From assembly GCA_964036195.1 (NCBI GenBank), contig OZ038452.1, forward strand, positions 13,262,704 through 13,326,703: a stretch of DNA of 64,000 nt. The letters run 5' to 3'. The notes beneath the pieces were generated by a model. The model had not been told where the DNA came from, did not search any database, and saw only the letters and a program-made list of their open reading frames with translations. Shown here one piece after another: positions 2,851-49,000 of this stretch. The stretch comes from Sphaerolaimus hirsutus (lineage: Eukaryota > Nematoda > Chromadorea > Monhysterida > Sphaerolaimidae). The stretch's first letter is position 1. The number at the start of each line of letters is the position of its first letter. The position numbers and the translations under genes were made by a program.

Positions 2851-2923
2851 GAACATAAGTTGGCAAATTGTCAAAAAATTGACATCGCTGTAACAAACTA
2901 AAATAGGCTAAAAATAGGTATAT

Positions 2924-2926
<3 letters not shown>

Positions 2927-2988
<62 letters not shown>
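2927..2988. repeat. (TA)n microsatellite
   Basis: An almost pure TA run of about 60 bases with one interruption. Confidence 0.9.
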
Positions 2989-4267: not shown

Positions 4268-4429
4268 ATCTCCACCAAGAAAAACGACATTTTCACATCG
4301 AAAGTGCGTTTATCCATCTCGGGCCACCGGAATTACCACGTCGAAAATGCATATCTCCCAAAAAAAGTTTCATTCCAAAAGTGCAAATTGTGCAAAGTGC
4401 ACCAAAGTGCACCAGACCAAAGTGCATTA

Positions 4430-7632: not shown

Positions 7633-8240
7633 GTACGGGTGATTGCATGTTACAAAAAAAATAAAAAAACGTCGTTCAAATTCAAATTTTATGCGTTGCC
7701 TTGTCGCGGGCTAGCTGCGGCACAATATCCAGGGCACTTTGAAATGAGATTGAAACAGCTGCTTTGTTTGGATTTGCACATGGTTTCATGTATGATGTTT
7801 GCTACACTACAACTGTATGCCGTTTTTCCTTTATTCAGCTTATTATTGTCCGATACCCGATTTTTTCATCACCCGGTACCCGATTTTTTCATTACCCGGA
7901 ACCGAAATTTGTTTAAATTTGGAACCGAAAGAACCGAACCGGAACCGAACTTAAGAACCGAACCGAGAACCGGAACCGGGAATTTTTTGGAACCGAGAAC
8001 CGAGAACCGAACCGAAATTTTTTAGAACCGAGAACCGAGAACCGGAACCGAAAATTTTGAAATTCCCAACCCTAGTGAATAGTGCCGCCGTATTCTGACA
8101 CATTTTTCAGCGGCGGAAGTCGACGAAGACTTATGGCAGTGACGTTTGGCACCATATTCATCATTTTCCGCCATGTTTAGCAACCGTTCTTATTGTTTTG
8201 CACGTTTTGACACGCAGCCAGCTGTGCCTTATTAGGTATG

Positions 8241-10175
8241 TGTAAGAGCGTTTTTACGATGGGAAAAACACCACCCCACAAAATTTTAGACAAACAAATG
8301 CAATAATAATTCACGGAACGTAAACTACTATGTATTTTGTAAACTAAATTTGGGCAAACTTTCTCAGACATTGCGACGGCTTTTCGACGGCAACGGGGAC
8401 TGCACGGCATGCACAGCCCTGCAGTGGGCTGCGCAGTACCCCGTCAGAGCACTGCATCGCAAGATCGACGCCGCTACATGGGCTGACCGAGTTCGCCATG
8501 TTTTATAGTGGTTGTAGTGCTCTGCACAATTTCGTTCCCTTACCCCCAATCTTAATTACTATTTTTGTGCGCCAAACCTATTTTAGTCGAGTTGGCTAGG
8601 TTATGTCTAGCTTAGGTGTAACTGCATTCCACATGGCATAAGGTGAGAGGGGAATTTCACACTTTTCACTTTGAAATGCCGCGGCGCGGCGTGTGGCCGC
8701 CTTTGGGCACGCCGGCACACTGTTGTGACTCTCTGGGCGGTCTAAAGCACATTCTACCCTTTACTTATCTTTGGGCAGAGGCGGAGACTGACGGCTGATA
8801 GGTAGGTGGCGACCGGAAGCCAGGAACAATGAATTTCACTCAAAAAATACAAAAGCACTGTTCCGCGTTCCTCCCCATGTTGACTAGATTGTCGTGCGTC
8901 ATCTAGTATCGGTGGGTGGTAGGAACAGCTTCTGATAACGCCCCAAGTGACAAGTCGCAGTCCAAAAAAATACTTTTCCGCCGCCCTAGCATAAATATCT
9001 CCTCGCGCTCGGAAGGGTGTGGCCATCGGGCTGAAACCTTTCTCACGGGCGCTAGCTGACCGGATAGTCACAATAGTGGGTCGCGGGGTTGGAGGTGATA
9101 AGCACTTCGCGCCCGCGAGCATTCTCTAGCTACCGTAACTTATGAATACAAAACCCCCAAGCAAAGTTTCCATGTGACATGTAGAAATTGTTGTACCTGT
9201 CGTTTCACGTCAATGCCTTTCATTCCCACGAGCTTAATTAATCGTTCTGTACCTTAATTAATTAACATTAGTTGTAAGCTTGTGTTAGCTGTCTAATTAT
9301 TGGTTAGCTTAAATTGCTGTGTTGGACTATGATGCCGTAATTGCCTTTGTACATACTTTGTTCATTCTGTTTTTGTAAATATGCGTTGCACTGCATTGTT
9401 ATCTGTTTTAAGTCGTTTTATATTAAGTAGGGATTTGTAGGTAATTATGGAAGTGAGTAATTGTCGCACCGAATAAACTTGTAAATTATAGGCTAAGCCC
9501 CATGTCGCATGAAGCTTTTTAATTACTTTTGTTAGCTGATACCAATTAGTACTCTTTTTATAAGCAGCTGCGTTACGTACGATTTTACTAAGTGCTTACA
9601 TCAGAGCTTATGTGATTTGAAAGTGATTTTGTAACCTCGCAATTTGATGTCTTTTTAGCTTTTTATTCAAGTCGATTATGGTAGTCTTGATTGCCTTATA
9701 AGTTGCTGAAATTGTTTTTTCCCCCCAACTTCGTCGACGTGACGTAAGCTGATTTTGCTTCTACTCTGCCGCTACTGTTCTTCCATCGCCCTAAAAAACA
9801 AACTCTCTTCTCAACCCAACTTGGACCCCCCTTTTTTGTATCAGCACTAAGTACTAACTGTTTTCCCTAAGTTAGCTAATTAACAACTGCTCTAATTACC
9901 GTGCTGCTTATGCTGAGTGTAAGTGCTGTGCGTGCTGCGGGAAACGGAACAGCGTGAGCCACCGAGTGGTTCATCGCACGTTCTGAAAAAACCTATCGTC
10001 TTCGGACACGTTTCCTTAAAATTTACAACACGCATTTATAACCTGGACCTCCGGGCCCAGTGCAGTGCACTGCAGCGGCAAGCGGCCGGTGAGGTGGGAA
10101 TAGAGGGAAAAGTGCGGTAAAAAAACCTCGTGAATCGTGTAGTCGAAAAACAGCTGAATACACGGATTCATGACA
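8241..10175 (+). repeat. 5' LTR of the Gypsy element 8241-23154
   Basis: Starts TG and ends CA, with the same length as the 3' copy. A TATA-like TTTTATAAG is at 9557-9564 and AATAAA at 9472-9477; their use as promoter or polyadenylation signal is a guess. The short ORFs inside occur in both LTRs and show no domain. Confidence 0.95.
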
Positions 10176-10178
10176 ACT

Positions 10179-10188
10179 TGGTAGCAGA
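10179..10188 (+). promoter_or_regulatory. Primer binding site for initiator tRNA-Met
   Basis: TGGTAGCAGA begins three bases after the LTR. It is complementary to the 3' end of metazoan initiator tRNA-Met (UCUGCUACCA), used as primer by many retroelements. The match stops after 10 bases. Confidence 0.75.
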
Positions 10189-10260
10189 CGCGAGTGGTTT
10201 GCTTAATTCACTTCAGTGAACGGTGCGGCGCCTGATCAACGCCAAGCCGTTAAGTGATAA

Positions 10261-12153
10261 GTAACAAACGATCTGTTGCGCCGGGTGGAAACGCTGCGGT
10301 CAGGAGGGCCAGCGTCAATCCCAGGGTCAGTTGAGGAAGTGTGGAGAGCTGCAGAACAGCTACAGAAGCGCACGCGCCGAGAAGCGGCTTTGCGCAGGGC
10401 ACAGCAGACTGCGGACGCGCAGGACGCTGAGGTTGAACAGGTAAGAGTTGAAGCAGGTGCGGAAGCGGAAGCCGAGCGCGCACAGGAAGCAGCGACTTGG
10501 ACCAGACGCACAGAGGATAGCACTCCCGTCGTCCGGCCAGTGCTGCAATTTGGAATTGCACGTGCAGGAACAGGCGGCAGCCGTTGGGATACGCCGGCTT
10601 GCGCGCCAGGTGCACTACCGACTGGGGCGGCTCGACGAGCGTCCAGTGGAGGCACAGAAACAGAACGCCCACCAGATAGTCCGCTCCTGCGACCCGACAG
10701 GCCAGTAAGTGCTGAGCCCGGGCGAGAGCAGCGGAAATCAAGTAAGTGGGGTTTATTTCGACGACCGTGGGGAAAAAGCGGCCGTAGCTCCCCGGTGTCG
10801 ACAGGGTCTGGATCACAGGCTGATTCAGCAGGGTACGCTGGTGAAGACGAGCCCGTGAGTTCGTCTGCATACCAGCGTAGAAGTGGTGAGACTTCCGTAA
10901 ATCTAATTGATACCCCAGTAGCGATCCCAGATATAAATATTGAATTTCCCTCGTTAGCCGAAGAGCTCGAAGAGGCGGAAAATTCATTGGGGGAGCTTCA
11001 ATTAAGTGCCCAGCGAAGCTCATCTACACCACGCGAGCTTGCGTCCGCGCAAGGCTCGATTGAAAGCTGTGTCTCTTCGAATAGAGCACGGCGCAGAATC
11101 GTAGGACCGTCTCCCATAAATCAAAGTAGAATGACCAGCACCCCACCCCCAGGTTCGAGTGTGACGACCGCGCCGGGCACGCTCACCACGGTGACGACTA
11201 CCCCGGCGGCGGCCAACCAAGTGACGCCGGGCCAGATCCTGACGGCGGCGACCGCGGCGGACCCGGGCAGGGAAACCACTGGGTACACTAGAGAAGGTTG
11301 GACCTTCCCGGGCATGATACAGCTATTGCACCAGTGGTCTGGGGAACTTAACCGCGCGGGACCAGCGGCGATTTCAGTCAATGCTTCCACAGCAGATAAA
11401 AATAAGCTACAGGCCATTAGGCTAGGTTTAAGTATGTACACCAGCGTAGGTAACCCCAGCGCGCTGGAGCAGGCCACCACTCAATTTTTGGCGTTTTGTT
11501 CTAACAGGGGATTAATTCCACCCATTGCATCGGCAGCTAATGCTACCTTAGGCGCGGGAACGGCCCCTGGGAACACAACCGCGCAGACTGTGCCCCCGCC
11601 GGCAAGTGTAAGCGGATCAGCGGGCGGCAGTGGAGCGGCGCCTGCGCCTGCAAACGCTACGGCTCAACCAGCTACCAGTGTAATCAATTTGGCGGGGCAG
11701 CCGGGTCCCTCCTCCCCAGGATCGTCAGGATCGATTTCACCTGCACCTAATCCTACGGATCCAGACTATCTGGCGCAGCACCAAGTGCCGCACGGCACGG
11801 CTGCTACGTTGACCGCCCTGGCTACGCAGTGCGATGCATTCACAGGAAGGGCTGACAAGAGTTTCAAGGACTGGAGACGTAAGTGGGATATTTTGTGTGA
11901 TGCGCTGGGTGTTTCAATGCGCTCTAGGCAAAAGTTGCTGCCTATCTTTTTACAAAAGAATGCCAATTCTATTTTTGTAGCTAGAAGGCGGGAACTGCGC
12001 GCACTTGATTACAAAGCCATGATGGATCGTTTGGAAGAATTGTTTGCAAATCCAAACGCCCAGCATCATGCACAGCGCGAGTTTATTGAGTCAACTCAAA
12101 GTCCCACTGAATCTGTGCTGGACTGGGCAACTAGATTGGAACGTGCAGTATAG
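10261..12153 (+). CDS. gag: Gag, N-terminal and capsid part; ends at premature TAG
   Basis: The open frame begins after a stop at 10258 and runs to TAG at 12151. It has no ATG until about 11131. Upstream of that it could start from a non-ATG codon (CTG 10273, TTG 10276) or be joined by splicing. The first 280 residues are charged and low in hydrophobics (Ala/Glu/Arg-rich), followed by a Pro/Ala/Thr/Gly-rich linker. Residues from about 520 on, including FTGRADKSFKDWRRKWDIL, look like a retrotransposon capsid domain. The TAG falls inside this domain, and the same frame continues the capsid sense beyond it (RAYPMLHS, FHQGLDKDIRR). I take the TAG as a nonsense mutation, probably from CAG, and not as a functional Gag end. 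Gag would form the particle shell. Confidence 0.75.
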   Translation, partial: VTNDLLRRVETLRSGGPASIPGSVEEVWRAAEQLQKRTRREAALRRAQQTADAQDAEVEQVRVEAGAEAEAERAQEAATWTRRTEDSTPVVRPVLQFGIARAGTGGSRWDTPACAPGALPTGAARRASSGGTETERPPDSPLLRPDRPVSAEPGREQRKSSKWGLFRRPWGKSGRSSPVSTGSGSQADSAGYAGEDEPVSSSAYQRRSGETSVNLIDTPVAIPDINIEFPSLAEELEEAENSLGELQLSAQRSSSTPRELASAQGSIESCVSSNRARRRIVGPSPINQSRMTSTPPPGSSVTTAPGTLTTVTTTPAAANQVTPGQILTAATAADPGRETTGYTREGWTFPGMIQLLHQWSGELNRAGPAAISVNASTADKNKLQAIRLGLSMYTSVGNPSALEQATTQFLAFCSNRGLIPPIASAANATLGAGTAPGNTTAQTVPPPASVSGSAGGSGAAPAPANATAQPATSVINLAGQPGPSSPGSSGSISPAPNPTDPDYLAQHQVPHGTAATLTALATQCDAFTGRADKSFKDWRRKWDILCDALGVSMRSRQKLLPIFLQKNANSIFVARRRELRALDYKAMMDRLEELFANPNAQHHAQREFIESTQSPTESVLDWATRLERAV

Positions 12154-15100
12154 CGCGCATACCCAATGCTGCATTCCGCCCAAAGGGAAGGCATGTGCAT
12201 CACTAAGTTTCACCAGGGGTTGGACAAGGACATTAGGCGCAATCTGGCGGTGCACGCCAATATAAGTTGGAAGGAATTAGTTGATAATGCGCGCATGCAA
12301 GAAAGCTACAAAAATCTTGAAACCGTTCAGAAGGAACATGCGAAGTCGGCCAGCGAGATCGTCGCCGAGACGTCGAACCAGGTCATGGAGCGCATCATGG
12401 CCATGAACCTGCACCCCTCGGTCCAGTCGATGGAGGCAGAGAGTGCCGAGAACGCGAAGCTCAAGGCCAAGGAACGGGCGCTCGACGAACGACAGAAAAA
12501 ACTCGACGCCCAGGAAGCTAAGATGATGGGCGCGCCGCGCCCGAGGCGTGAGCTACCGCCGAAAAGGTTTGAAAATGGATGTTGGGAATGTGGATCTCCT
12601 GATCACTTTCGTTACCAATGTCCAAATAAGCCCCCTCCCGAGCCATCTGCTGGCAATGATAACAATCAGCGTGGCCGCGGAGGTGACTTTCGTGCGCGCG
12701 GTAGAGGTGGCGGCCGAGGGCGAGGCCGTGGACAAGGAGGACAATATCCACAAAACTTTGGGTATCCAGGTGGATGGGTACTGATGCAATTAAGTCAACC
12801 TATGACAGTGCCTTCCTCGCAGATGATGCAGCCTGTGTACGTCCAGAGCCAGCAGCCCGCGGCCATCGGATGGCACCCGCAGCCACAACCGGCGCAACGG
12901 CCGTTGGAATCGCAGCAAGGTCAGAGCAGCAGCGTGCCGCTGTTGAACCCGACGACAGTGACACAGGTGGGTGAATGCACTTACAAGGCCGTGACCGAGT
13001 CACCGCCGTCTTATGCTAGAATTCTCTTCCATCATGATCAACTATTGACATTGCAAGGGCTGGAGCCGGAAGCCCCTGACGAGGAGGAGGAGATGGAGGA
13101 GCAACCTGTAGCTAGCCTTCAGTGTAAAATGCACGCGCTCATGGTAGATCGGGAACAGTGGATTAGCCACTGGGCGTATCAACGCGAAGCCACGTCAATT
13201 CTATTTCGTACCAGTTGGTTAGATTATCTGCGGCGCACTGCAATGCATGATCTGAAGGATGAAGATTGTGTGGTGCTCCCAGACTGTCGCCCGCATGACG
13301 ACCACAATGATACGCTTACTAGAATCGAGTGGAGGGTTTTGCGTGACGCCCCATTAGACCCATTCCTAAATGAGCCCCCTGTGATTTTGTCCCCGCGTAC
13401 GTTTTCGAGCACATGCGTTGATAAAATGGCCGAATTTAGAGACAAAACGTCCGCAGTGCCTCGCCAGCGAGCGTATTCTGAGCCACCGTATAATAATCAA
13501 GTCTTTGGCGCTTTGTTTACAGTGTTCACCATCGCCGCGGTGATGGCGTGCTTGAGCTTGATGCCTTTGGCGGCGGCCACGACGATGCCGGACACGCCAC
13601 TGCTGTGCAGCGACCTGACCGATCATTACGACTTGTACACCTACCCCGACCTGCCTAACTGCACCGCGTTAGTCGATTCTGCTGTGTCGTTGACTAAACC
13701 GGTTCCCCTGAAACTCACTATTTACAAACGCAATATGGTAGAGTATCGTGCCACTGCGTATCGATGTGTAGCGGCTACGCGGTCGGCTCATACATACCAG
13801 AACTTCTGGGGTGACGTCACTTTGGAACATTTTGACTCGCAGCCGCGTGCGGTAGATCCCTCGGAGTGTGAGAGCATGATGAAGTACCATAAGTGCAACG
13901 ACGGCGCGCTTCAGCCAGTGGACGAGCTGAGCAACGCATGGGACACTCAATACCCGACAAACGTAAGTTACTCGGGGCACGGGCTGTACTGTTGCAGCTG
14001 GTTAATTACCAAGACCCCGCAGTGTGGGTTGTTTAAGGGAGATGTACGCATGCGCTACGGCGCCAAGGTCATGCAAAGTACGCTAGGAGAAGTGTCAAAA
14101 TGTAATTACGAGGAGGGCACCTGTACCCTGCCCGACGGTAGCCAATTAGTCTGGAAACCAAATCCAAAGGCTGAATGCCCCTATGAGAAATGGCAAGAAA
14201 TAGCTGGGTTAATTAGACAAGATATTTGGCTCGCGCGTGATCACACTTTGGCATTGTCATTTCGAGCAAAAGAAGAAATCATTTCATGTGGTGAAAAACT
14301 ATGGAAATCAGACCAGGATATTGTTGTGGCACCGTTCAAAATCCCCCCAATTAGGTATGTGCGGGAGAAGCGTCGCGCAGCACGCCCCGGATTTGGCGTA
14401 GTGGACACCGGTCACCTGGCCGCAGCGATGCAAGCGGTGTACGAGACATCTGAGCAAACTATGCGTGCACAGGCCGTGTCTACTTGTAGGCATGTGCAAC
14501 ATTTTCAGGAACTTCTCCGCCTAGCTATGACCGAGCACCCGACGACCACGGCGCGCTGGTACATGCGCGACAATGAGATTTTGGCCAAGGCGGCGCCAGA
14601 CGGATTTCTAGTGCATAAGTGTTTTGCGGTAAAGACTTATCAGTTGGGCACCGAAACAGGTAAAGGCGCGTGCCACGCTACGGTCCCAATACGAATGAAA
14701 TTACATGGACAGAATGTGACCTTACATTTGGATACAATTACAAATGCCCTTCTGTTCCAGCCGGTTATGGGAACGTGCACAAATCGCCACAACCGTGTGT
14801 TGAAATTGCATGGGCAGTGGTATAAGTACTTACCTGAGAAAGGCGCCCTGGAACATATCCCCGTTTACAACACCCACAGTTTCCCACACAGGTGGCAGCT
14901 CGAACGACCGACGGACGTGCACCATCAGATCTTTGCCGCAACGACAATGTACAATTTGTCTGAGCTGCTGCCGACCACCACGCTGAACGACGTGTGGCAC
15001 TCATACGCGATTGTGCGGCGCGTGCATGGAATGCCGACGCATGCAGTTGATGGCAGTTTACAATCGCATCGATTAATGGCCAGGTCAATGGTAAGCGTGG

Positions 15101-16783
15101 GATTTTGGGATTTTGACGCCTTGAGGTCATGGCTGCAGATATGGATTTACCTGGTGTGCGCCATAGTGACTTGCCAGTATTTATTAGCAGCTCTGTTAGC
15201 CGCCGCGCCCCCGGCAGCTACGACGCTAATTGAACGTGCGCGCCGACGACTTCGACGGGAGTCAAGGCCGCTGATTACCCGACACAGAGACGCAGGTAAG
15301 CGTAGCTTTATGAAAAGCTATGACGGCCGACTGACCGTGTTGAATCCGACAACAGGTGCGTCCGAGTGCGCATCAGATGACACGGTAACGGTACAGATGT
15401 TTCCATCAATTGAATATAATCACCAATTAGAAATGGCGGAAATTTCCATGAGCCCATCAGTGGAGAGAATCAGAATGATTATGCTATCAAAAGATGAACA
15501 GGAAAATATAAAGTCTGTCGTCGCGAGGCGGAACGGGCCTGTGCATGTCTACTACAGCCCTGCAGTGCCCGTGTGTATGGACGGCATCATGTACCACAGA
15601 TGTCTGCTGGACACCGGCGCCATGCGCTCGTTATGCAGCAGAGACGTGTTCCAGGAGCATCGACATGGACACGACGCCGTTGAAGAAACTTCTCCCATTT
15701 CCCACATGCGATGCGCTGCGGATTCCAAGCTAATGATAATTGGTCAGTTGGAAATGCCCATTGAAATAGGGGGACACACGTTTCGTGTTGTTTTCCAAGC
15801 CATCGATGGCTTGGTTGACAATTTAATTTTGGGCGCGGATGTGCTGCGGCACATGATAATTGATATGCCCGCGCGCCTCTTAAAAATCCCCTCAGTAGGC
15901 GTCAGCATTCCCTTTGATAACCACAAGCCGGACGTGCAGATTTGTGCAGTGTTTGCATTAGTCACAGCGGCTACCGAAATCAAGGCAAGGCATGAAGCAA
16001 TGGTGCCGGTGCGCCTATCAGCTCCAGTTAGCTATCGTACATTTATGGTCACTGGGCTGGAATCCGTAAACTTGAAGGATGGGGTAGTTGCCGCATCTGC
16101 AGCATATGAAACAAGTGACGAGGTGTTCCTAATGAGGGTCGCAAACGTGCGTGATCAACCGGTTACCTTGCAGATGGAACAAAAAATCGGTTTGGTTGAG
16201 CCCGTCGATTGTGTTCTGAAAGTCAAAGCCGGCGATCCCCCTGAGGAATGGATACGGCAGTGCCGCGCCAACGAAGCGACAGAGCCGGTATCTTCAAGCG
16301 TTCCAGAAAAGGTAATTGAAGACCAATTAGGTGAGCCATTGCATGTGAAATGTCCAGACGGACACGAAATGGAATTTTCTGTGCCCCAAACATTGTCGGA
16401 AAATGAGCGCAAGGAACTTGCAGCCGTACTTTTGAAGCACAAAGGCGCTTTTGCGAGACATAAGTACGACATAGGGTACAGCGAATTAGTTGATTATCGA
16501 CTGCAATTGACCGATCGAAAACCGATTGCGTGCCGCATGTATCGGTTGAGCCTGGATGACCAACAATACTTGGAAAAGCACCTGCGCTGTCTAATTGAAC
16601 ACGACATAATTGAAACAAGCACAAGCCCATACTGCGCTCCCACATTAGTCGTTTCTAAACCTGATGGTTCTAAACGCATGGTCATTGATTACAGGCGATT
16701 AAATTTGGTTTTGCATGCGCCGCAATTCCCATTGCCGAGGCTGGATGACACCGTGGATGCACTCAGCAACTGCAAGTTTTTTT
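12154..16783 (+). CDS. Gag C-terminus, zinc knuckle, env-like domain, protease, RT N-terminus
   Basis: Same frame as Gag, open without a stop to the T-run at 16777. Numbering from the ATG at 12166: capsid end and coiled-coil region 1-130; CCHC knuckle CWECGSPDHFRYQC at 139-152; Arg/Gly-rich nucleic-acid binding stretch 160-190; acidic linker; hydrophobic signal-like segment 446-472; Cys-rich ectodomain about 473-975; second hydrophobic segment 986-1015 followed by a basic tail; aspartic protease with LLDTGA (Asp about 1149) and LGADVL about 1222; then RT start with YDIGYSELVDY and KPDGSKRMVIDYRRLN. The frame breaks at a run of seven T; six would restore the reading into the next segment. An envelope-like domain ahead of the protease is not the retroviral order. 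Confidence 0.85.
13450..15290 (+). other. env-like: Envelope-like glycoprotein domain inside the polyprotein
   Basis: Signs of a membrane fusion glycoprotein: a hydrophobic segment ending in a small-residue patch that could be cut by signal peptidase (13501-13580); at least four N-glycosylation sequons (NCT, NVS, NVT, NLS); many cysteines, including a CC pair; a basic furin-type cluster REKRR at 14362-14376; a C-terminal transmembrane segment (15121-15210); and a tail rich in Arg. Spaced motifs (YRC, FWG, NVSYS, CC, VW, CPYE) appear in the same order as in the envelope of the BEL element at 44259-57335, suggesting common origin. Class III or chuvirus-like folds are a possibility I cannot test here. 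Location would be the cell or particle membrane. Confidence 0.7.
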
Positions 16784-18430
16784 AGCAGTGCCGATATTAA
16801 TCAGGCCTTCTATAACATTGCACTGCATCCCGACGACAGACACATCACTTCATTCCGTAATATTTTTGGTCAATTCCAATTAAAGAGATTACCTATGGGA
16901 TTAAAATGCTCACCAAGTTTGGCACAAAGGTGTTTTGAGCTTGCAATGGCGGGATTGATTCATCGCAATGTGCTATTGTACATTGACGACTTGTTAATTT
17001 ACAGTCAGGATTGGAAAACCCATTTAAGTGACATTGGCCAAATTTTGGATCGATTGATCAAAAATAACTTCAAAATTAGTCCCCGTAAGTGTTTTTTCGC
17101 ACGCATCACTGCGGTAAAATTTCTGGGCTTTATGATCGGCCGTGAGGGCATTTGCATTCCCATGGACAAACGCAATATTATCTCAGAATGGCCCCTCCCG
17201 AAAACTGTCAAGGAAGTCAAAGGGTTTTTGGGAGCAGTGGGATTTTTCAGACGCATGATACACAGGTGCGCCGAAATAGCAGTGCCGCTATCGAATTTGA
17301 CACGCACCGGTCCGCGCGAGAACTACGATGGAAATGCGCCGGTAGATCTCAACGATAACCCTGAGGCTCTGAGAGCCTTCTTCCAATTAAAAGAAATTTT
17401 ATTACACAGCCCCTGTTTGCAATACCCGAACCCAAGTAAAACGTTCATCGTAATTACAGACGCTTCACAAATTGCGGTCGCCGGAGTGCTGGTACAGCGA
17501 GCCGACGAAAAATCTGGACTGCATGCGTGCGCTTTCTACAGCCGGAAGTTGACTGAGGTTCAGAGCAGATGGCCCGCCATCACTCTAGAGGCTTACGCAA
17601 TTTTTGAGAGCGTTCGAAATTGGCATTGCTACCTGGCGGGACGCCCCTTTGAAGTGTGGACTGATGCCAAAAGTATCCCTTGGGTGAAAAACCCCAATTT
17701 GGAAGCTACACCACACGCCGCATTGCATAAGTTTGCGTTGGCCATTGCCCCGTATCAAATTACATTCAAGCACTTGAAAGGAAAGTGCAATGAGCTCGCA
17801 GATGCTCTGTCCCGAAGGCGCGATGCGCCAATAACTTTCGACGAGAAATTGGAACTTGACGAGGCATTTGAGCAATTTGCACTCATTAAAATATCGCACA
17901 ACAAAACTGTCGCGACGCAGACCGCAATTGACCCGTGGGATACGGTAGCTACTGTTTCCAGACGCGCGCCTACCAAGGAACCAATGAGGACACGCGCGCG
18001 TGCGAGGGCGGAGTCTGCGGCGCGTGACCGCAACCCTGGGACAATGGACACGCGACAGCCGGCGAACAATGGGGTGGAGCCAATTACCGGACTCACTACC
18101 GTAGGTCCACAAACAATGGCTGGTGGCCCCGCGGCTGCCGAAGTGCGCGTCAACGGTTTTCACACTGATCACGTTTTGCCCCCGTTTCTCCCCATAATTG
18201 AATTGAAGCGCTTGCAAATGCAAGAAGCGTACATAGTGAATTTGATGGAAGTTTGTAAGGATGCACCTGGACAATGTGTGCCACCGTTTTTCATTGATCA
18301 ATATGGAATCATCCGAAAAAGGGCTGAGGCTTCAATAGTACCGGGGATCAAGTTGTATGATCCTGTGTGTATTCCAGCCTCATTGTGCCCGCTAGTATTC
18401 GAACTAGCGCACAATCACCCTACAGCATGA
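16784..18430 (+). CDS. pol: Reverse transcriptase palm/thumb, RNase H, start of integrase
   Basis: Continues the RT after the +1 break: SSADINQAFYNIAL, LPMGLKCSPSLAQRCF and the catalytic YIDD box (16979-16990) copy RNA to DNA. RT connection motifs FLGFMIG and GFLGAVGFFRRMI follow. RNase H motifs are ITDAS (Asp at about 17460), LEAYAIFE and WTDAKSI, and its end is near LADALSRR at 17800. A low-complexity linker leads to the first histidines of the integrase zinc finger (HNHPTA). The frame stops at TGA (18428-18430) in the middle of that finger. The next ORF is in the same frame, so this is a point nonsense mutation; CGA or GGA to TGA would explain it. The tracked ATG at 16715 is in the overlap and is not a real start. 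Confidence 0.88.
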   Translation, partial: SSADINQAFYNIALHPDDRHITSFRNIFGQFQLKRLPMGLKCSPSLAQRCFELAMAGLIHRNVLLYIDDLLIYSQDWKTHLSDIGQILDRLIKNNFKISPRKCFFARITAVKFLGFMIGREGICIPMDKRNIISEWPLPKTVKEVKGFLGAVGFFRRMIHRCAEIAVPLSNLTRTGPRENYDGNAPVDLNDNPEALRAFFQLKEILLHSPCLQYPNPSKTFIVITDASQIAVAGVLVQRADEKSGLHACAFYSRKLTEVQSRWPAITLEAYAIFESVRNWHCYLAGRPFEVWTDAKSIPWVKNPNLEATPHAALHKFALAIAPYQITFKHLKGKCNELADALSRRRDAPITFDEKLELDEAFEQFALIKISHNKTVATQTAIDPWDTVATVSRRAPTKEPMRTRARARAESAARDRNPGTMDTRQPANNGVEPITGLTTVGPQTMAGGPAAAEVRVNGFHTDHVLPPFLPIIELKRLQMQEAYIVNLMEVCKDAPGQCVPPFFIDQYGIIRKRAEASIVPGIKLYDPVCIPASLCPLVFELAHNHPTA

Positions 18431-19498
18431 CATCTGGGAATAATGAAAACTTTCGAAAGATTACAGGAATTCGCGTGGTTCCCAAATATGCACCCCGAAA
18501 GCGCGCATTGGGTCGCCACGTGCCCTTTGTGTTGTGCGCGAAAAGGACTCAGGCAGTCGATGCAGACTTTGATGGCGTGCCGGAAAATCGCGCGATCTCC
18601 CGGCGATGTCATCGCAGTCGACGCCGTTGGCCCGCTGCCACGCACGCGGCGCGGGCATAAACACGTGTTGGTTTTCGTTGACCAGTGCACGCGATTTGGT
18701 ATCGCTGTGCCGGTACCCGATATCCGGCAGGATACTGTAGCATTTGCATTTTTGCTACACATTCTTCCCATATTTAGCGTACCCGGCGCCATTTTGAGCG
18801 ATAACGCGCCAAGCTTTGTCGAAGGGGCATTCAAAAGATTGTTATTGTATTTCAATACCCTTCAGCATCGCTCATTTGCGTATATGCCAAAAGGCAACGG
18901 AATGGTGGAGCGCCGAAACGGTGTTCTGATGGAAATTGTGTCCCATTACGTGAACCAAACTCATTCCGATTGGGATTACCACCTAGGCGCCGCGGTGCAC
19001 GCGTATAATACTTCGAAACACCCGGCAATGGGCACCACGCCATATGCACTTTTGTTTGGGCGCCCAGCCGCGTCGCTATGGGAAAGAATGTTGACGCCCC
19101 CCGCGCCTGGCGCAATGCTACCCGAGTCGACAGATAAGCACGGCGAACCTACCGAGCTCGCGCAGCGTCTCTCGGCGGCGCGCAATGCGGCGCATACCGC
19201 GCTTAGGAATGCTCAATTGAAAGAGCAATACTACGCCAATCGCCGCGCCCGCCATTTGAATTTGAAGCCGGGCCAAGCGGTCCGTATTTTCACTCCGCGT
19301 TTGACCGATCAGACCGGCCCTTGTAAAAAATTTGCTGCTTTCTTTTTAGGCCCCTACGAATGCATTCGCTATGCTCATCCGCTTGTAACTATTTATAATG
19401 ATACTAATGATAAGATTTACGTAGTGCATGCGGACCGCTGTAAACCAACGCTTGAAAACATTATCCCCACATGTACGCAGAATCTCGGCCCTACTTAG
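18431..19498 (+). CDS. int: Integrase
   Basis: Same frame as the RT segment. It completes the H2C2 zinc finger (HLGIMKTFERL, then CPLCC at about 18520). The DDE catalytic core shows Asp in VIAVDAVGPL, Asp in ILSDNAPSF and Glu in GNGMVERRNG. The C-terminal GPY/F-type module (FFLGPYECIRYA) follows, and the protein ends at TAG 19496. Integrase inserts the cDNA copy into chromosomes; the 4-bp TSD of this element records that event. Length and motif order are normal for Gypsy integrases. No chromodomain is visible. Confidence 0.9.
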   Translation, partial: HLGIMKTFERLQEFAWFPNMHPESAHWVATCPLCCARKGLRQSMQTLMACRKIARSPGDVIAVDAVGPLPRTRRGHKHVLVFVDQCTRFGIAVPVPDIRQDTVAFAFLLHILPIFSVPGAILSDNAPSFVEGAFKRLLLYFNTLQHRSFAYMPKGNGMVERRNGVLMEIVSHYVNQTHSDWDYHLGAAVHAYNTSKHPAMGTTPYALLFGRPAASLWERMLTPPAPGAMLPESTDKHGEPTELAQRLSAARNAAHTALRNAQLKEQYYANRRARHLNLKPGQAVRIFTPRLTDQTGPCKKFAAFFLGPYECIRYAHPLVTIYNDTNDKIYVVHADRCKPTLENIIPTCTQNLGPT

Positions 19499-19589
19499 AC
19501 TCTCATTGCGGTAAAGCCCTTAAGTGGCTATCGACGTAGCCACTGAACAAATTAATTAATTGTGTTCCCGTAATTCGAATAATTCCCCC

Positions 19590-19617
19590 ATCACGTAAGT
19601 TTGATAAACTTGTGATC
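19590..19617 (+). other. Small hairpin upstream of the accessory ORF
   Basis: ATCAC and AAGTTT pair with AAACTT and GTGAT around a GAT loop. It lies between integrase and the accessory ORF. The role is unknown and chance is possible. Confidence 0.3.
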
Positions 19618-19760
19618 CCAAGTGCGTGTGACTGTGCGTTCGCGTGTGTGTGAGTGCGGTTGTAAATTCACTGGTACACTAGTGGGCTCCGAGAGTCCAC
19701 TGCAGTGCCGGTGATTGATTGTGATTAATTGCACTCTTCCTTAAAACTTAAAAACGTAAC

Positions 19761-20625
19761 ATGGCCGGAAGGAGTATGGGCGCCAAACGGCAGCACAACG
19801 GCCGGCGGGCTAGCGCCGCGGGCTCGGGCTTCACGAAAGCCACCACCCAACGTGGCGAACCGGGCGCCACCATACCGCCCCCCAAGGTGGATCACCAGTG
19901 GGGAGAGAACCAGCGGCCCCCGCCGCCCGTCTACGCGAAGCGGATGTTCGCCGGCTGGGTGGACCGTGTCTACTGGAGGCACGACACTGCTGACCGGGAG
20001 TACTACCAAGCCCACGTGCGGCTTCACGATGATGCGCTGGCCGAGCTGGCCGAGAACGACGAATGGAACGACGCCGACAACGTGTACCCATTCTTCACTT
20101 ACTCGACCAACATCGCGCGCAACGCCCGCAACCGCCGCACGTCGGTCGTGGTGGCGCAGTACGCCAACGTCAACAAGAAGTACGGCCCGGAGCTGCACTT
20201 GCCGCTTGTCAGACACGGTATGAAGTTTACGGCCAGGTATGTGCAGCGTTGCACTGCTAAGCCCGACTACTGGGAGTTCTTTGACATTAAATTGGACATG
20301 AACAAAAGCGCTAGCCCCCTATTGGTGGCAGTGCCCGTCGTCGTAACCGTACAGGGATGCGCCCCAGCCGGCGGACGAGCCGCTGCCGTACGACCCTACG
20401 GACGAGGTCGAGGACATCGCCAGCACTTCCGATGGTGATGGCGACGACGCCACATTCTCCGCGCCGGAGGAGGAGGCGCTGCTAGCCCCCGGCGGCGACA
20501 TCGAGCCCGACGAACCCGTGGCGGTCGCTGCGCCCGCGCTGGCGCCGGCAAAAGAGGACGACATGCAGCCCGAGGGCGCTACCGAAGAAGATGTGCCCAT
20601 GGAGGGCACTGACGAGGGAGTTTGA
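19761..20625 (+). CDS. Accessory ORF after integrase, basic body with acidic tail in another frame
   Basis: ATG at 19761 sits in a fair context (AACATGG). The open frame reaches 20438 (225 aa). Residues 1-60 are basic and rich in Gly/Ala. Residues about 65-180 look like a folded domain (FAGWVDRVYWRHD, NVYPFFTYSTN, YWEFFDIKLDMN). From 20345 to the TGA at 20623 the +1 frame gives about 90 residues very rich in Asp/Glu/Pro, which look like real protein, while the tail of the 225-aa frame (Gly/Arg/His) looks like a shadow. A one-base indel near 20300-20345, a splice or a programmed shift could join them. I do not recognise the protein. Its place matches that of env or accessory genes in other retroelements. 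Confidence 0.55.
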
Positions 20626-21219
20626 GTAAACCCAGGACATTTTTGTTTTGAAAGTTTTTGGAAACCGATAACGTAATGGAAACTATAAACAACAGTGAAA
20701 CAAACAAAACAATTAACCAAGTATCTCGAAATCACACACCAAATAGTTTCCAAGACGTTCGCTGCGGCACCGAATGGCCGAGTTTTGTCCCCCCGAGTTG
20801 ACGAACGTAACAGCCGCCCCCAGTTGACCGTCCAAAATTGGCACTTTTCTGAACAAAAAACAAGTTTTTGTAAATTTGAAAAGAGAAAAATAATTTTGAA
20901 AATGGAAATACCTCAAGAACCCAATTGGCAATTCCATTATAAAGTCCCGACTGCAAAAGGCAGGGCAGTTGATTAACTCCCATACCGTTCTCAGCTTATT
21001 ATTGCATTTTTGTAATTGCCAGCCACGCTCCGGAATTTGATTTTCGACTGTGAAATGCACGCAAGCCATTTTTGCATGCAAATAACCACTTTTAAAAAAT
21101 TTCGAAAAGATGAACAACTTTTATATTTAACGAAAAATTTTGTGCATGCGATCGTAAAAATAATCACCGGTCACACCTCAATAGTTTAGCCAGGAGGTAA
21201 ACCGCAATGGCTGGTGGGT
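20626..21219 (+). other. 3' untranslated part of the Gypsy element
   Basis: No convincing ORF. AGGAGGTAAA (21192-21201) and GGTGGGT just before the LTR are the only purine-rich pieces, so the polypurine tract is weak. Confidence 0.5.
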
Positions 21220-23154
21220 TGTAAGAGCGTTTTTACGATGGGAAAAACACCACCCCACAAAATTTTAGACAAACAAATGCAATAATAATTCACGGAACGT
21301 AAACTACTATGTATTTTGTAAACTAAATTTGGGCAAACTTTCTCAGACATTGCGACGGCTTTTCAACGGCAACGGGGACTGCACGGCATGCACAGCCCTG
21401 CAGTGGGCTGCGCAGTACCCCATCAGAGCACTGCATCGCAAGATCGACGCCGCTACATGGGCTGACCGAGTTCGCCATGTTTTATAGTGGTTGTAGTGCT
21501 CTGCACAATTTCGTTCCCTTACCCCCAATCTTAATTACTATTTTTGTGCGCCAAACCTATTTTAGTCGAGTTGGCTAGGTTATGTCTAGCTTAGGTGTAA
21601 CTGCATTCCACATGGCATAAGGTGAGAGGGGAATTTCACACTTTTCACTTTGAAATGCCGCGGCGCGGCGTGTGGCCGCCTTTGGGCACGCCGGCACACT
21701 GTTGTGACTCTCTGGGCGGTCTAAAGCACATTCTACCCTTTACTTATCTTTGGGCAGAGGCGGAGACTGACGGCTGATAGGTAGGTGGCGACCGGAAGCC
21801 AGGAACAATGAATTTCACTCAAAAAATACAAAAGCACTGTTCCGCGTTCCTCCCCATGTTGACTAGATTGTCGTGCGTCATCTAGTATCGGTGGGTGGTA
21901 GGAACAGCTTCTGATAACGCCCCAAGTGACAAGTCGCAGTCCAAAAAAATACTTTTCCGCCGCCCTAGCATAAATATCTCCTCGCGCTCGGAAGGGTGTG
22001 GCCATCGGGCTGAAACCTTTCTCACGGGCGCTAGCTGACCGGATAGTCACAATAGTGGGTCGCGGGGTTGGAGGTGATAAGCACTTCGCGCCCGCGAGCA
22101 TTCTCTAGCTACCGTAACTTATGAATACAAAACCCCCAAGCAAAGTTTCCATGTGACATGTAGAAATTGTTGTACCTGTCGTTTCACGTCAATGCCTTTC
22201 ATTCCCACGAGCTTAATTAATCGTTCTGTACCTTAATTAATTAACATTAGTTGTAAGCTTGTGTTAGCTGTCTAATTATTGGTTAGCTTAAATTGCTGTG
22301 TTGGACTATGATGCCGTAATTGCCTTTGTACATACTTTGTTCATTCTGTTTTTGTAAATATGCGTTGCACTGCATTGTTATCTGTTTTAAGTCGTTTTAT
22401 ATTAAGTAGGGATTTGTAGGTAATTATGGAAGTGAGTAATTGTTGCACCGAATAAACTTGTAAATTATAGGCTAAGCCCCATGTCGCATGAAGCTTTTTA
22501 ATTACTTTTGTTAGCTGATACCAATTAGTACTCTTTTTATAAGCAGCTGCGTTACGTACGATTTTACTAAGTGCTTACATCAGAGCTTATGTGATTTGAA
22601 AGTGATTTTGTAACCTCGCAATTTGATGTCTTTTTAGCTTTTTATTCAAGTCGATTATGGTAGTCTTGATTGCCTTATAAGTTGCTGAAATTGTTTTTTC
22701 CCCCCAACTTCGTCGACGCGACGTAAGCTGATTTTGCTTCTACTCTGCCGCTACTGTTCTTCCATCGCCCTAAAAAATAAACTCTCTTCTCAACCCAACT
22801 TGGACCCCCCTTTTTTGTATCAGCACTAAGTACTAACTGTTTTCCCTAAGTTAGCTAATTAACAACTGCTCTAATTACCGTGCTGCTTATGCTGAGTGTA
22901 AGTGCTGTGCGTGCTGCGGGAAACGGAACAGTGTGAGCCACCGAGTGGTTCATCGCACGTTCTGAAAAAACCTATCGTCTTCGGACACGTTTCCTTAAAA
23001 TTTACAACACGCATTTATAACCTGGACCTCCGGGCCCAGTGCAGTGCACTGCAGCGGCAAGCGGCCGGTGAGGTGGGAATAGAGGGAAAAGTGCGGTAAA
23101 AAAACCTCGTGAATCGTGTAGTCGAAAAACAGCTGAATACACGGATTCATGACA
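21220..23154 (+). repeat. 3' LTR of the Gypsy element 8241-23154
   Basis: Same 1,935 bp as the 5' copy, with about six differences seen by eye, all transitions. One of them creates an AATAAA at 22776-22781 that is AACAAA in the 5' copy. Confidence 0.95.
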
Positions 23155-23475
23155 TATGCCTTATATTAGAGGGTACCTTATATTTATTTCGTCGCGTTCA
23201 AAATAGCCAAAAGTTATACCTTATATTAGAGGGTACCTTATATTAGAGGGATGCCTTATATTGGAGGTAATACGGTATGTATGTTTCGCTTTCGCTATAC
23301 TCATTCAGTATTGTGCGGCGCTGTATCACAAATTGACGATGAGTTACACTTAAATGTCACAAAATGGTCTTACATGATGAATACGATCTGAAAAACCGTG
23401 CTCGTTTACATTGACCCCCCAAAACCGCTTATAAAACAATACATTGGCGGTCAATATGATCGAAGAAATACGGTA

Positions 23476-44258: not shown

Positions 44259-46072
44259 TGTGATGAAGCCACCGAAGTCAGCGTCTTCTACCACCGAATC
44301 CGGCTGCTTCAAGACCGTAGTGAGAAACGGCCTTTAGAGTGGTTGATTTCCCGTTGTAGCCGAACGTCCACTTGTCGACAGCCAAGTTGAGTTTATTTCG
44401 TAGTTGTGTGTTAAAAAGGGGGTTTCGAATTGTTTCAGGTACTTTATTTCGATCAGATACAGCGTGTTGCAAAAGCGCTAAGCCTAGCGAGCTTCCTAGT
44501 CGAAGTTTCTATCGCTAGCTTATTTTTGTTCAGAAGCTTGGGGTCCGCAGACTGAAGTAAAAACTCTCAAAGTAGCTAAGACACGGAAATCACGTATAGA
44601 AAAACAGCTACAGTAATTTCCTAATACAAATGCACAAATAAGACATAAATGCAGCAAATCAACACATTTAGCCGAAACAGTTGCCTTATACTGCGCGTGC
44701 GTACATTCAAATAATTATGGTAAAGAAATACCAGGTACAAATTGGGCTAATGGAAAAACTATTAATCTTGAGGCGCGAAGTCGGCAAACTCGGCCGATTT
44801 ACTAATTTGCTTCAATTTGTCAGAAAACATTGACGCACATTGGAACTAATATGATAGGGTTGGGAAATCTAAATAGCAGTGCAAATGTTCCTAATGACGT
44901 AAATAGAACAGGGTATATTCAACATAATAATAATAATCACTTCCTGGAAACGTATGTTGAATAAACAGTAAACTGGGACTTATTCGGGGTAAATGGGTGT
45001 TGTAATTGAGCAGAGTCTTTAATATATTTGATTGAGCGGGGTATTATAATTATTAAGTAAATATAAATAGTTGTGAGCGAGGTTATGACAATTATGCCTA
45101 TGCGAAGGGCTTTATACAGTAAATGCTAGTTACACACAGGGCACCATTTCTCTATTAGGACGCTAGCCTAGATAATTACGCAGCACGTAAATATTTACAA
45201 GTTTTGACTTTTGTAAATTGCAAGTAAACTATGCAAATGTATATATAATCATGATCAGAAAATTACGGCGAGTTGACTGAGCCTAATTTCATGTTAATAC
45301 ACCTAATAATAACTTATTTGACTTTTTAACCTAAATATTTCACATAAACATATCTATTAATCATAAAACACTTTCCTAATTAAATATTCTCCATGGATAA
45401 ATAATATAGTGCAGGAAATATAATTTGATATTTTGCGTGGTAAATAAATATAGTGCATGAAAAGTAAATTAGTGCAAATAAGTAAATGTGCGAATATGAG
45501 CCTAATTATCAATTCTCTGTATTTCTTTATCCATCCATTTTGCCACGGTCAGCACACTCCGGGCGGAAGAGTTGCTGCACCCCGTTGTTGCAGCAACGTC
45601 ACATGCTGGTGGTGGTGGGCGCCAAAGTGATGAGTGGCGTTTCCACAGTCGCCTCGGTGGTGAACGTGGTCGTGCGCGAAGTCGTGGGCGTGCGTGAAGT
45701 TGCAGGTCCGGTTGCTGGCGATGCCAACGCCGACCTAGCCTGATGATGAAGCAGGTAGTTGCCCGTGTCGCTTCCTGCGCGTTCGCGTGAGGTGAATTTG
45801 CGGATATCGGGCATGTGAACACTGTCTCTGTTCCTGGCTCTGACTTGTCCCTCATCAGCTGAACTTTCATCTGGCTGAACGTATGCTGATAGTGACTTTG
45901 CCATTCTGTCCTCTGTTTCTGCTCTCCTGGCAAATCTGACGGACTGTGTTGAGTTGGATCTGGCTCTCCTCTTGATTGCTGGTCTCAACTCTGTTTTGCG
46001 TACTTTTCTCTGTGGGTAATTGGTCTCTTTTTGAGTTGACTTCTTGATAGTGTATCTGACGGCTCTGAAGCA
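44259..46072 (-). repeat. 3' LTR of the BEL element
   Basis: Contains the last 157 codons and stop of the polyprotein (45599-46072). From 44259 to 45598 it is non-coding and AT-rich. Identical in length to 55522-57335. Confidence 0.93.
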
Positions 46073-49000
46073 TAGCCATATGCACTTGAATGGACACACT
46101 ATGCATTTCCATATGCATGTGTATACGCATGGTGGAATCACTGGTTTCCCTGTGGCAATTCTCCAATTGTACCACAGGTATCCTGCAGCAACAATTCCAG
46201 CTACCAGGATTGTGATTCCCAGCAGCATTGCGATTGTGTTGATGATCACTTGAAAGGGTCCTTTCAGCATTCCTCCCATAAAGTTGGTATACCCCTTTGA
46301 CACTCCAGATATATAGTGACCATATGCTTTGCCGATTCCTGCTGCTGTCTGTCCAATTCCAGCTCCAATGCCTTCTATTGAATTTCTGATCACTCTGGGA
46401 TCCAATGACATGTCTGCTGTATAATCGATCAACTGGTTCTGCACATGCTCCAAATTCTGTAGTCTCTGAATCTGGCCTCTGACATCCATGAAATTGGTCG
46501 CTCTGTTGACAATGTTGGTGAATAGGTGAGGCGCATCAAACGTGAAAGCCTGCCACTGTCCCTTCCATGTCATTTCAATTGGCGTCTCTGTGACATGCAC
46601 CATTCCATGTGCGGACTTCCATTGTCCATGCTCATTTCTGTACAGGTGCGGTGTAGTGTGGCTGCAGTCCTCTTCTGGTGATTTCTCCACCAAGTCTCTG
46701 CTGCCTGGGCTCTTGAACCACAAGGGCCCGTCTTTATCCAATCTCATTGGTGTGTATTTGTAGCATGTCTCTCCCACTTTTCCCGTCTGATAAACTATGT
46801 ACGGCTGTACTTCCTTGCATTCCCAAAACATAATTGCTTCTCCAGCCCATTCTGCATGAACATCCTGTCTTCCCAGCATGGCTCGAATCCCTAATGTTGG
46901 ATCGATGCGGAAAAGCTGAGTCAACATGTCCAGCTGGTTCTTGCGAAGTTGACATAGCTGATGCCATACAATCGCAAATTGTGCCTGAGTCATCTCTCTG
47001 ACCACATGTTGCAGGAACTGAAACTTGGAGTTTCTGTCGTCCAATCTGGCATACAATGTTCCACTGATTGTTGACTCTCTCGCCTCCACTATCTTTCCCG
47101 GCATTGCCCATTCCACAGGCACATCTTCTCTTCTGTCAAACTGGATGAATACACCTCCTTGATCGGTGTAGTATGTGTCTCCTGGAACACATTCTGAGCC
47201 AATTGGCCTCTTTGTCTTGTTGCTGTGGGAGTATGCTGCTTGCAATTTTGATACAATAATTGTCTGGCCAGATATCTCTGATTTGAATCTGCCAATTCTC
47301 TCATATGCACATTGATGCTTGAAGTTCTCTGTATCCCACACTGTAATTCCATAATTGTGGTCTCTGCAATGTCCCATCATGGCTCTGCACTGGCTGAAAT
47401 CTTGCAAGTCGCTGATTACAGTCTTTCCATCGAGTGAAGCCACAGTTCCTTCCTCCATGTAGAAGTTACTGACGACATTCTCTTTGTCATGGCAACACCA
47501 TGAATATTCCACATTCAAGGTTTGATTGGTTGTCCACACTCTGGGTTCCATTTCTACCAAAGGTGTTCCTCTGAACATCTTATGAATTCTTGCATAGTTA
47601 CAGGCTACCACGCCAACTTGCTGGTATTTCTCAAAATTGCCTGTAATGCCTTTCGCTCCCCAGAAACTGGTGTGTGTGATGATTTCTTTGATTCTGATGT
47701 AGCATCTGTATGCTTTCTCTTTCTGTGGAATCTGTCTCTGTGCGTAAAGTGTAACTTTCATTGCCTTGACAAAATTCCTTGGTGGGATATGGCACTGCAC
47801 TTCTTCAGGAACTGTAAGCGCATGTCCATGCCTTCCACTGGTGCAAATCTGATACTTCTGGCTTTGTGAATTGATCACCTGTTCCACAGGATGATCCTTG
47901 ATTGCATCTTTGAATCTCTCATAAGTCTGCATTTCTCTGACAGATTTTGGTGGCCATTCTGAAGGCAAAGGCGGCAATCCATGATGCGCTGCCAATGATG
48001 GTGGCCTTACTGTCGAGGTTTCCAGAACGTATGTTCTGGAAAATACTTCGCTGTAAGCTTTGCCAGCTTTTCTCAGCGTTGCTGACTCTGACATGCCTGT
48101 CAGCATCAACACCATGCACAACATTCCAATCACCAGACTGCTGGTGGTTGCTGTGGTTTTCCCTGTTGCACTTCTCAGGACTCTATCCGATGCTGAGTTC
48201 CTCTGAGCAGGGTTTTGTACAGAGTCTCTGTTCAAGCTCTGATTTCTGACATGTTTCTGGACAATTGCTGGGTCCAGTAAATCCACTTTGACTGTCACTG
48301 CTGTCTCTGGGATATCCATTGTCTTTGAATTGATTTCCAGCGGATACAATTGATTGAGTGGTCTGCTGACCACATTTCTGTTGGCAGTTCTGACTTTTGC
48401 TGAGCGAATCTGTCCATCTTTGCTGGGCTCTAACTGCTCGATGCGACCCATCCTCCATGCACCTCTGGGCATGTTCTCTTCATAAATCAGCACAACTTCA
48501 TTCACTTTGGGTTCTTGAGTCGCTGTCAATCTGCCATGTTTGTGCGTCACCTGAGTTCTTTCCCTCAAGCTCGGAATGTACTCTTGATGCCACAAGTCCC
48601 AGAACTTATTCAAAGTTTGCTGGGTTGTCTCCCAATATTTCTGCAGTTTCGCTGCGTTATCCATTCTGGGCACAAATTCTCCATCTTTGTCTGCGTCAAA
48701 CTGTGGTGCTCCAATTTGACCTTCCCCTGTCAGGAAGTCTTTTGGCGTCAGCACTCTGAGGCTCTTTACATCACCATAGATGTAAGAGATTGGCCTGCTG
48801 TTGATCACTGCTTCGACTTCTGGCAAAAGTGTCAACAATTCTTGCAGGGTTAACATTCTGTGCCCCACAGCTGCCTTGAAATGTTTCTTGGTGATGCCCA
48901 CCATTCTTTCATAGACTCCTCCCTGCCATGGTGCCATAGGAGTAGTCATGTTCCACTGGATTTGTTGCTGTGAGCAGTATGTCTGTACTGCTCCATTTTT

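What the first reader, a model, noticed from the sequence alone, without database searches (positions are those of the whole stretch)
12154..16783. Gypsy element with the order Gag-Env-Pol in one frame
Seen: one uninterrupted frame holds a CCHC knuckle, a signal-like segment, a Cys-rich ectodomain with N-glycosylation sites and a furin-like REKRR, a transmembrane segment, and only then the DTGA protease and RT. Known: retroviruses and env-carrying LTR elements place env after pol. Inference: a glycoprotein was captured between gag and protease, so that every Gag-Pol molecule would carry a membrane-anchored segment, or it is made by cleavage or splicing. I know of no described element with this order.
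Basis: partly seen in the sequence, partly recalled or inferred. Interest (0 to 1): 0.88.

Follow-up and report, generated by a model that had tools for sequence, protein, structure and literature searches.

The report
Retroelement with envelope between gag and pol
A family of virus-like jumping genes carries a virus-type surface protein in the middle of its main protein, between the shell part and the enzymes, where no described relative we could find has it, and the copies compared show that natural selection keeps it there.

Summary
The window copy is an LTR element at 8241-23154 (LTRs 1935 bp, 6 differences). Its main frame reads Gag, CCHC knuckle, linker, signal-like segment, ectodomain with REKRR, transmembrane helix, aspartic protease, Ty3-like RT/RNase H, integrase. 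The glycoprotein matches Pfam Monjiviricetes_fusion (PF24664, E 5e-8, above cut-off) and is related (E 8e-9) to that of a BEL/Pao element in the same window, which has it after integrase. All 32 copies scored (window included, of 563 candidates) span Gag-Env-PR-RT; 29 of the 31 others have no stop across it. pN/pS of the env segment is 0.046, as in gag (0.043) and PR-RT (0.050). The window copy is damaged. Ten other copies examined have no stop in the gag frame and carry a second long frame, in the one tested a UPF1-like helicase, mostly deleted here. Best mechanism: one polyprotein inserted into the ER membrane by an internal, cleavable signal, so that Gag and Pol both stay cytosolic. A spliced env mRNA is not excluded, and the fold could not be modelled. 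I found no published element with this order.

The parts
8241..10175 (+). 5' LTR, 1935 bp, TG...CA
   Evidence: 1929 of 1935 identical to 21220-23154, no gaps
8237..8240 (.). target-site duplication TATG, left copy (right copy 23155-23158)
   Evidence: flanks
10179..10188 (+). putative primer-binding site, 3 bases after the LTR (match to initiator Met tRNA is recalled, not tested)
   Evidence: sequence
10261..12621 (+). gag (N-terminal part, capsid, nucleocapsid); in this copy interrupted by one in-frame TAG at 12151; no ATG in the frame before 11131
   Evidence: 0 stops in 10 of 10 other copies examined; PNMA-like capsid match, E 2e-4, below Pfam cut-off
12580..12621 (+). CCHC zinc knuckle CX2CX4HX4C
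   Evidence: the four residues invariant in 31 of 31 copies; Pfam zf-CCHC E 0.023, below cut-off
12631..13449 (+). linker between nucleocapsid and env; contains PPSY (late-domain-like, a recalled motif) at ORF residue 280
   Evidence: pN/pS 0.048
13501..13578 (+). signal peptide / first membrane segment, with an AxA cleavage-like end (judged by eye, no signal predictor was run)
   Evidence: the -3 and -1 Ala are invariant in 31 of 31 copies, the middle residue varies (A3, V17, G10, E1)
13579..15129 (+). glycoprotein ectodomain, 16 Cys, 4 N-glycosylation motifs; PF24664 match at 14080-14916
14362..14376 (+). furin-like site REKRR
   Evidence: invariant in 31 of 31 copies
15130..15207 (+). C-terminal transmembrane segment, followed by a basic cytoplasmic tail
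15565..15852 (+). aspartic protease, DTGA at 15610
   Evidence: PF13975 E 0.006 and PF13650 E 0.011, both below cut-off
16500..18430 (+). reverse transcriptase (start approximate, by eye) and RNase H; frame change in this copy between 16703 and 16783; stop TGA at 18428
   Evidence: Pfam RVT_1 and RNase H in the frame 16715-18430; Ty3 nearest solved relative, E 1e-40
18443..19498 (+). integrase (H2C2 and core)
   Evidence: rve E 3.6e-8, above cut-off; H2C2 E 3.6e-5, just below
19761..20625 (+). remnant of ORF2, about 1,330 codons where followed to its end in another copy; about 3.1 kb is missing here at 20359-20370
21220..23154 (+). 3' LTR
45602..48307 (-). comparison: the related glycoprotein at the C-terminal end of a BEL/Pao element's single 2941-aa frame, after integrase

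Best explanation
This is a Ty3/Gypsy-type LTR element whose main gene encodes Gag-Env-protease-RT-RNaseH-integrase in one frame, followed in other copies by a second gene, a UPF1-like helicase in the copy tested. Env is a fusion glycoprotein of the chuvirus/Monjiviricetes type, presumably captured. SHOWN: the order; its presence in all 32 scored copies; strong purifying selection on the env segment in that frame; conserved signal-cleavage-like, furin-like, Cys and glycosylation residues. INFERRED: the genomic RNA is translated as one polyprotein. The internal signal inserts the growing chain into the ER, and signal peptidase cuts after AxA and frees Gag. The ectodomain is lumenal and is cut at REKRR. 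The second helix returns the chain to the cytosol, so Pol ends on the same side as Gag, and the element's protease later frees Pol from the Env tail. The ER signal would then do the Gag/Pol separation that other elements leave to a stop codon, frameshift or protease, and would anchor Pol at the budding membrane.
For: Order and motifs. Family of the glycoprotein; weak profile link to herpesvirus gB. Ty3-like RT. Copies: 32 of 32 scored cover 1-4630; 29 of 31 others without a stop, 30 of 31 with exactly the same length. Selection. Ten other copies, of the 31, have no stop in the gag frame up to the junction. Eight of those ten have 904 further open codons of pol in the continuing frame, so Gag, Env and Pol share one frame. 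Signal-peptidase-like pattern invariant at -3/-1 with a free middle residue, 31 of 31. Net charge in 20 residues before and after the first helix is +1 and -2, before and after the second +1 and +5. Recent activity: LTR difference 6/1935 in the window copy and 0/1930 in one other, the only other copy whose 3' LTR was read.
Against: No RNA or protein data. The AlphaFold model is uninformative (pLDDT 30.6). The env sequence alone matches no solved structure of this kind (none; three unrelated hits at E above 1), and the gB link may be driven by the BEL row of the profile. No homologue among the 7,993 to 7,996 candidates scored in each of three protein-database searches, nor in four viral-contig scans. 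The protease, capsid and zinc-knuckle matches fall below Pfam cut-offs. Many motifs are invariant only because so young a family varies little.
Confidence: 0.62

Rival explanations
1. Same architecture, but Env is made from a spliced mRNA (gag removed in front, pol removed behind), and Gag-Pol perhaps from an RNA that skips the env segment. The open frame is then mainly what genomic RNA needs, and little full Gag-Env-Pol is made.
For: Splicing in one-frame retroelements is known: Cer1 makes CERV this way (PMC10309623, passages). A donor-like CAG|GTAAGC lies at 15296, just after the Env tail, unchanged in 30 of 31 copies, and the strongest acceptor-like site is at 19350 near the end of pol.
Against: Donor- and acceptor-like sites are not clearly above shuffles (15 against 10 donors, 2 against 1.35 acceptors). 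At that threshold the only acceptor-like site in front of env is at 11508, about 2 kb upstream. With so little variation, site conservation says little. The score tables used were generic and the host is unknown.
Confidence: 0.3
2. A secondary or nested insertion in a dead copy, or an assembly artefact, that happens to keep the frame.
For: This copy is broken in gag, RT, integrase and ORF2.
Against: The same segment is in all 31 other scored copies, on 16 contigs counting the window's, at 97-98% identity, with pN/pS 0.046. No direct or inverted repeats of 14 bases or more in 12600-15800.
Confidence: 0.02
3. The segment is a membrane protein that is not an entry glycoprotein, for example a Gag-processing membrane anchor that has lost fusion function.
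For: Only part of PF24664 is matched (positions 193-472 of 653). No fold could be modelled.
Against: Furin-like site, Cys and glycosylation motifs are invariant in 31 of 31 copies. Related by sequence to the BEL element's glycoprotein.
Confidence: 0.1

Closest known systems
Anakin, a BEL/Pao element of mosquitoes with a chuvirus glycoprotein (PMC7642597, passages)
   Same: LTR retroelement that captured a chuvirus-type glycoprotein
   Different: BEL/Pao polymerase, not Ty3/Gypsy. The passages I saw do not say where its glycoprotein lies. The BEL element in this window has it after integrase.
Errantivirus / gypsy-type insect retroviruses (recalled; a PMC12440569 passage, says env likely from baculovirus)
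   Same: Metaviridae with an envelope gene
   Different: Env comes after pol and is of another family (recalled); here it comes before protease and matches PF24664.
Ty3/Gypsy elements without env, such as the second Gypsy element in this window (40337-62109)
   Same: Gag, protease, RT, RNase H, integrase
   Different: No hydrophobic segment in its Gag-protease frame; DTG at residue 618 of that frame.
Cer1 of C. elegans (PMC10309623, passages)
   Same: Gypsy/Ty3 element with no stop between gag and pol and with an extra protein
   Different: The extra protein CERV is nuclear, its own frame lies after pol, and it is made by splicing; it is no glycoprotein.
Glycoproteins of Monjiviricetes/chuviruses (Pfam PF24664; that chuviruses belong here is recalled)
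   Same: Sequence match above the curated cut-off
   Different: Carried inside a retroelement polyprotein.

Membership tests
Ty3/Gypsy (Metaviridae) | RT/RNase H closest to Ty3 | tested here: met
   best matches are Ty3 RT 4ol8 (E 1e-40) and Ty3 Gag-Pol 7q5b (E 1.7e-40); the next entries (RT/RNase H p80, retroviral by recall) at E 3.4e-24 or weaker
Ty3/Gypsy (Metaviridae) | Order protease-RT-RNaseH-integrase | tested here: met
   the protease by DTGA and below-cut-off Pfam matches
Ty3/Gypsy (Metaviridae) | LTRs TG..CA with short target duplication | tested here: met
Ty3/Gypsy (Metaviridae) | RT phylogeny inside the family | not tested
   no tree was built
Errantivirus / retrovirus-like order | env downstream of pol | tested here: not met
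   the downstream frame matches a helicase (one copy)
Monjiviricetes/chuvirus-type fusion glycoprotein | Match to PF24664 at the curated cut-off | tested here: met
   31.7 bits, cut-off 27; partial, positions 193-472 of 653. The longer frame gave 28.2 bits
Class III fusion proteins (gB, VSV G) | Class III fold | tested here: inconclusive
   model pLDDT 30.6; two-row profile: five matches, all named gB, GP110 or BALF4 (taken as gB by recall), best E 0.0069
BEL/Pao (Anakin-like) | BEL/Pao domains (Peptidase_A17, DUF1758, DUF1759) | tested here: not met
   one search finds none in this element; they are present in the window's BEL element

The most novel reading that the evidence does not exclude
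The element uses ER targeting as its Gag/Pol switch. One polyprotein is cut by the host's signal peptidase into Gag and a membrane-anchored Env-Pol, so that the entry protein and the polymerase reach the particle as one molecule and entry and replication functions are packaged together. No described retroelement known to me does this.
Probability: 0.4. Interest if true: 0.92.

Novelty: new variant of a known kind. Interest (0 to 1): 0.82.

Why it matters
Retroviruses and env-carrying retrotransposons are described with env after pol (recalled; also a passage of PMC10309623, for simple retroviruses). A recently active family that holds its glycoprotein between Gag and Pol under strong selection shows that this order is not obligatory. 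It makes a definite question testable: can a retroelement regulate Gag:Pol and package Pol by way of the membrane? It also adds a Ty3/Gypsy element to the captors of a chuvirus-type glycoprotein; a 2023 survey of arthropod genomes found no clear Gypsy case (PMC10084718, passages).

Tried and rejected
Protein database searches with the env segment, the longer env piece and the two-sequence alignment: no hits at E 0.01, 0.1 and 0.1 among the 7,993-7,996 candidates scored. Viral-contig scans with env, RT, BEL env and the alignment: no relatives. Structure prediction from two sequences: unusable, so no fold search was made and the second structure job was not used. Splice-site scan: not above chance. 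Rfam and tRNA scans of the window: nothing. PHROGs on two pieces: nothing useful. Synonymous-variation scan: lowest window 12394-12513 in gag, also low around 14914-15243; not pursued. The conservation check of DTGA was made at wrong residues and is not used. Nested-insertion and artefact readings were rejected. Host identity was not established.

Limits: only 32 of 563 candidates were scored, chosen for similarity to a query that contains env, so env-less copies could be missed. Two follow-up genome searches, for distant env relatives and for protease-RT without env, did not complete.
Full report
WHAT IS THERE. The window holds an LTR element at 8241-23154. Its LTRs are 1935 bp, differ at 6 positions and are flanked by the repeat TATG. 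Frame 1 is open from about 10261 to 16783 except for one TAG at 12151; pol then continues in another frame, 16703-19496, with one TGA at 18428. Within it come, in order, the later part of Gag, a CCHC knuckle, a linker of about 270 residues, a signal-like segment, the ectodomain, REKRR, a transmembrane segment, DTGA and the start of RT. Pfam finds RVT_1, RNase H and integrase downstream. Among solved structures Ty3 RT is by far the closest (E 1e-40; the entries after the two Ty3 ones at 3.4e-24 or weaker). Several single motifs are weak evidence by themselves: the frame has four matches to a loose furin pattern and six NxS/T motifs, its Cys content is like that of pol, and the hydropathy scan also flags a segment in integrase and two in the BEL Gag-Pol.

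WHAT THE EXTRA SEGMENT IS. The segment 13450-15290 matches PF24664, Monjiviricetes fusion glycoprotein, at 31.7 bits (cut-off 27, E 5.4e-8), over profile positions 193-472 of 653. A BEL/Pao element in the same window (frame 45599-54424, minus strand, 2941 aa) ends in a glycoprotein that matches the same family (60.9 bits) and, below the cut-off, herpesvirus gB (E 7e-4). The two glycoproteins are related (BLASTP E 8e-9, 43 of 163 identical). A profile of the two finds five solved sequences at E up to 10, named gB, GP110 or BALF4 (all gB by recall), best E 0.0069. The Gypsy env alone finds none of them, so the gB link may rest on the BEL row. AlphaFold with these two rows gave pLDDT 30.6 and is not used.

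OTHER COPIES. The host assembly has 348,482,957 bases in 762 contigs. The search scored 32 of 563 first-look candidates, the window copy among them; all 32 cover the whole query 1-4630, the 31 others at 97-98%. All 32 were read. 30 of the 31 others are exactly 4630 bases long, one is 4585. 29 of the 31 have no stop in the frame and two have two stops each. The shorter copy was left out of the selection counts, which use 31 sequences. Pooled pN/pS over all pairs: gag part (12154-12630) 0.043, linker 0.048, env 0.046, tail-protease 0.063, PR-RT 0.050. Window against the 30 others: gag 0.015, linker 0.070, env 0.044, tail-protease 0.113, PR-RT 0.038. Variants of env seen in at least two copies: 72 synonymous, 6 replacing; singletons: 86 and 36. 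As a control, the same segment read in the two other frames gives 1.38 and 3.68, and differences fall at codon positions 1, 2, 3 as 2786, 639, 9938. So the env segment is under the same strong purifying selection as gag and PR-RT, in this frame and at this place.

DETAIL OF SELECTION. In 31 of 31 copies the four CCHC residues, REKRR, 16 ectodomain Cys and four glycosylation Asn are invariant. In so young a family most residues are, so this alone is weak. More telling, the presumed signal-peptidase site keeps Ala at -3 and -1 in 31 of 31 while the residue between is A, V, G or E (3, 17, 10, 1). The 20 residues after the second helix carry +5 net charge, those after the first -2, as expected for a cytosolic and a lumenal side.

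STATE OF THE WINDOW COPY. It is damaged: a stop in gag, a frame change in RT, a stop in integrase, and a deletion of about 3.1 kb in a second gene, with 12 bases shared by the deletion ends. Flanks of ten other copies were read, 10 of the 31. All ten have a 5' LTR and none has a stop in the gag frame. Eight of ten have 904 further open codons of pol; one has a stop and one an insertion. Less damaged copies therefore exist; none is singled out.

THE SECOND GENE. Nine of these ten copies carry at least 1161 codons, and the tenth at least 938, of a frame at the place of the window's ORF at 19761, up to the end of the stretch read. It was tested in one copy: it matches AAA_12 (73.6 bits, cut-off 27, E 2e-20), its nearest solved relative is UPF1 (E 0.0026), and it weakly matches the IGHMBP2 family far below that family's cut-off (E 7e-5). 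In the one copy followed further it ends 176 codons later, about 1,330 codons in all, and that copy's LTRs are identical over 1930 bp. Among nine copies pN/pS is 0.086 over 36 pairs; for pol 0.065 over 28 of 36 pairs, since 8 pairs below 93% ungapped identity were dropped. A UPF1-like helicase might shield a two-gene RNA from nonsense-mediated decay; that is speculation.

HOW IT PROBABLY WORKS. Gag, Env and Pol share one frame. With a signal peptide and one further helix, the ectodomain would be lumenal and both Gag and Pol cytosolic, the simplest topology in which such a protein makes sense. Host signal peptidase would release Gag, furin would cut Env, and the element's protease would free Pol. 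None of these steps was tested. Splicing is the main rival; the sites found are not clearly above chance.

WHAT IS KNOWN. Searches of the open-access library for this order, for chuvirus glycoproteins in Gypsy elements or for a helicase in such elements (one search failed on input) listed no title or abstract describing it; most papers were seen only as listings. 'gag-env-pol' with 'retrotransposon' gave 0 papers. Subscription papers, preprints and Repbase were not searched. A 2023 survey reports no clear capture of such glycoproteins by Gypsy elements (PMC10084718, passages). Anakin is a BEL/Pao case (PMC7642597, passages). Other accessory domains do vary in place: dUTPase lies between protease and RT in bdelloid rotifer elements (PMC5408684, passages).

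VERDICT. The order is real, kept in every copy scored, and selected (about 0.95). The polyprotein mechanism is the best reading but untested. It is a new variant of env-carrying LTR elements, not a new kind.

Noticed in passing
window 19761-20625, and the same place in other copies: A second gene of about 1,330 codons in other copies matches a UPF1-like SF1 helicase (AAA_12 E 2e-20, one copy tested) and is under purifying selection (pN/pS 0.086, nine copies); the window copy has lost about 3.1 kb of it.
   Followed up: partly
window 44259-57335: A BEL/Pao element with 1814-bp LTRs 99.9% identical and one open 2941-aa Gag-Pol-Env frame, ending in a Monjiviricetes/gB-like glycoprotein.
   Followed up: partly
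window 40337-62109: A second Gypsy element (LTRs 544 bp, 99.8%; flanking repeat ATAT) split inside RT by the BEL element; no hydrophobic segment in its Gag-protease frame.
   Followed up: partly
window 10261-11131: The gag frame of the window copy has no ATG for its first 290 codons, though the frame is open in all ten other copies examined; a non-ATG start or a spliced leader may be used.
   Followed up: no
window 12394-12513: Fewest synonymous variants of the overlapping 40-codon windows across the 4.6-kb frame (2 seen, 9.3 expected; many windows tested); possibly an RNA signal.
   Followed up: no
window 4293-4853: Tandem array with copies about 48 bases apart, open in several frames.
   Followed up: no
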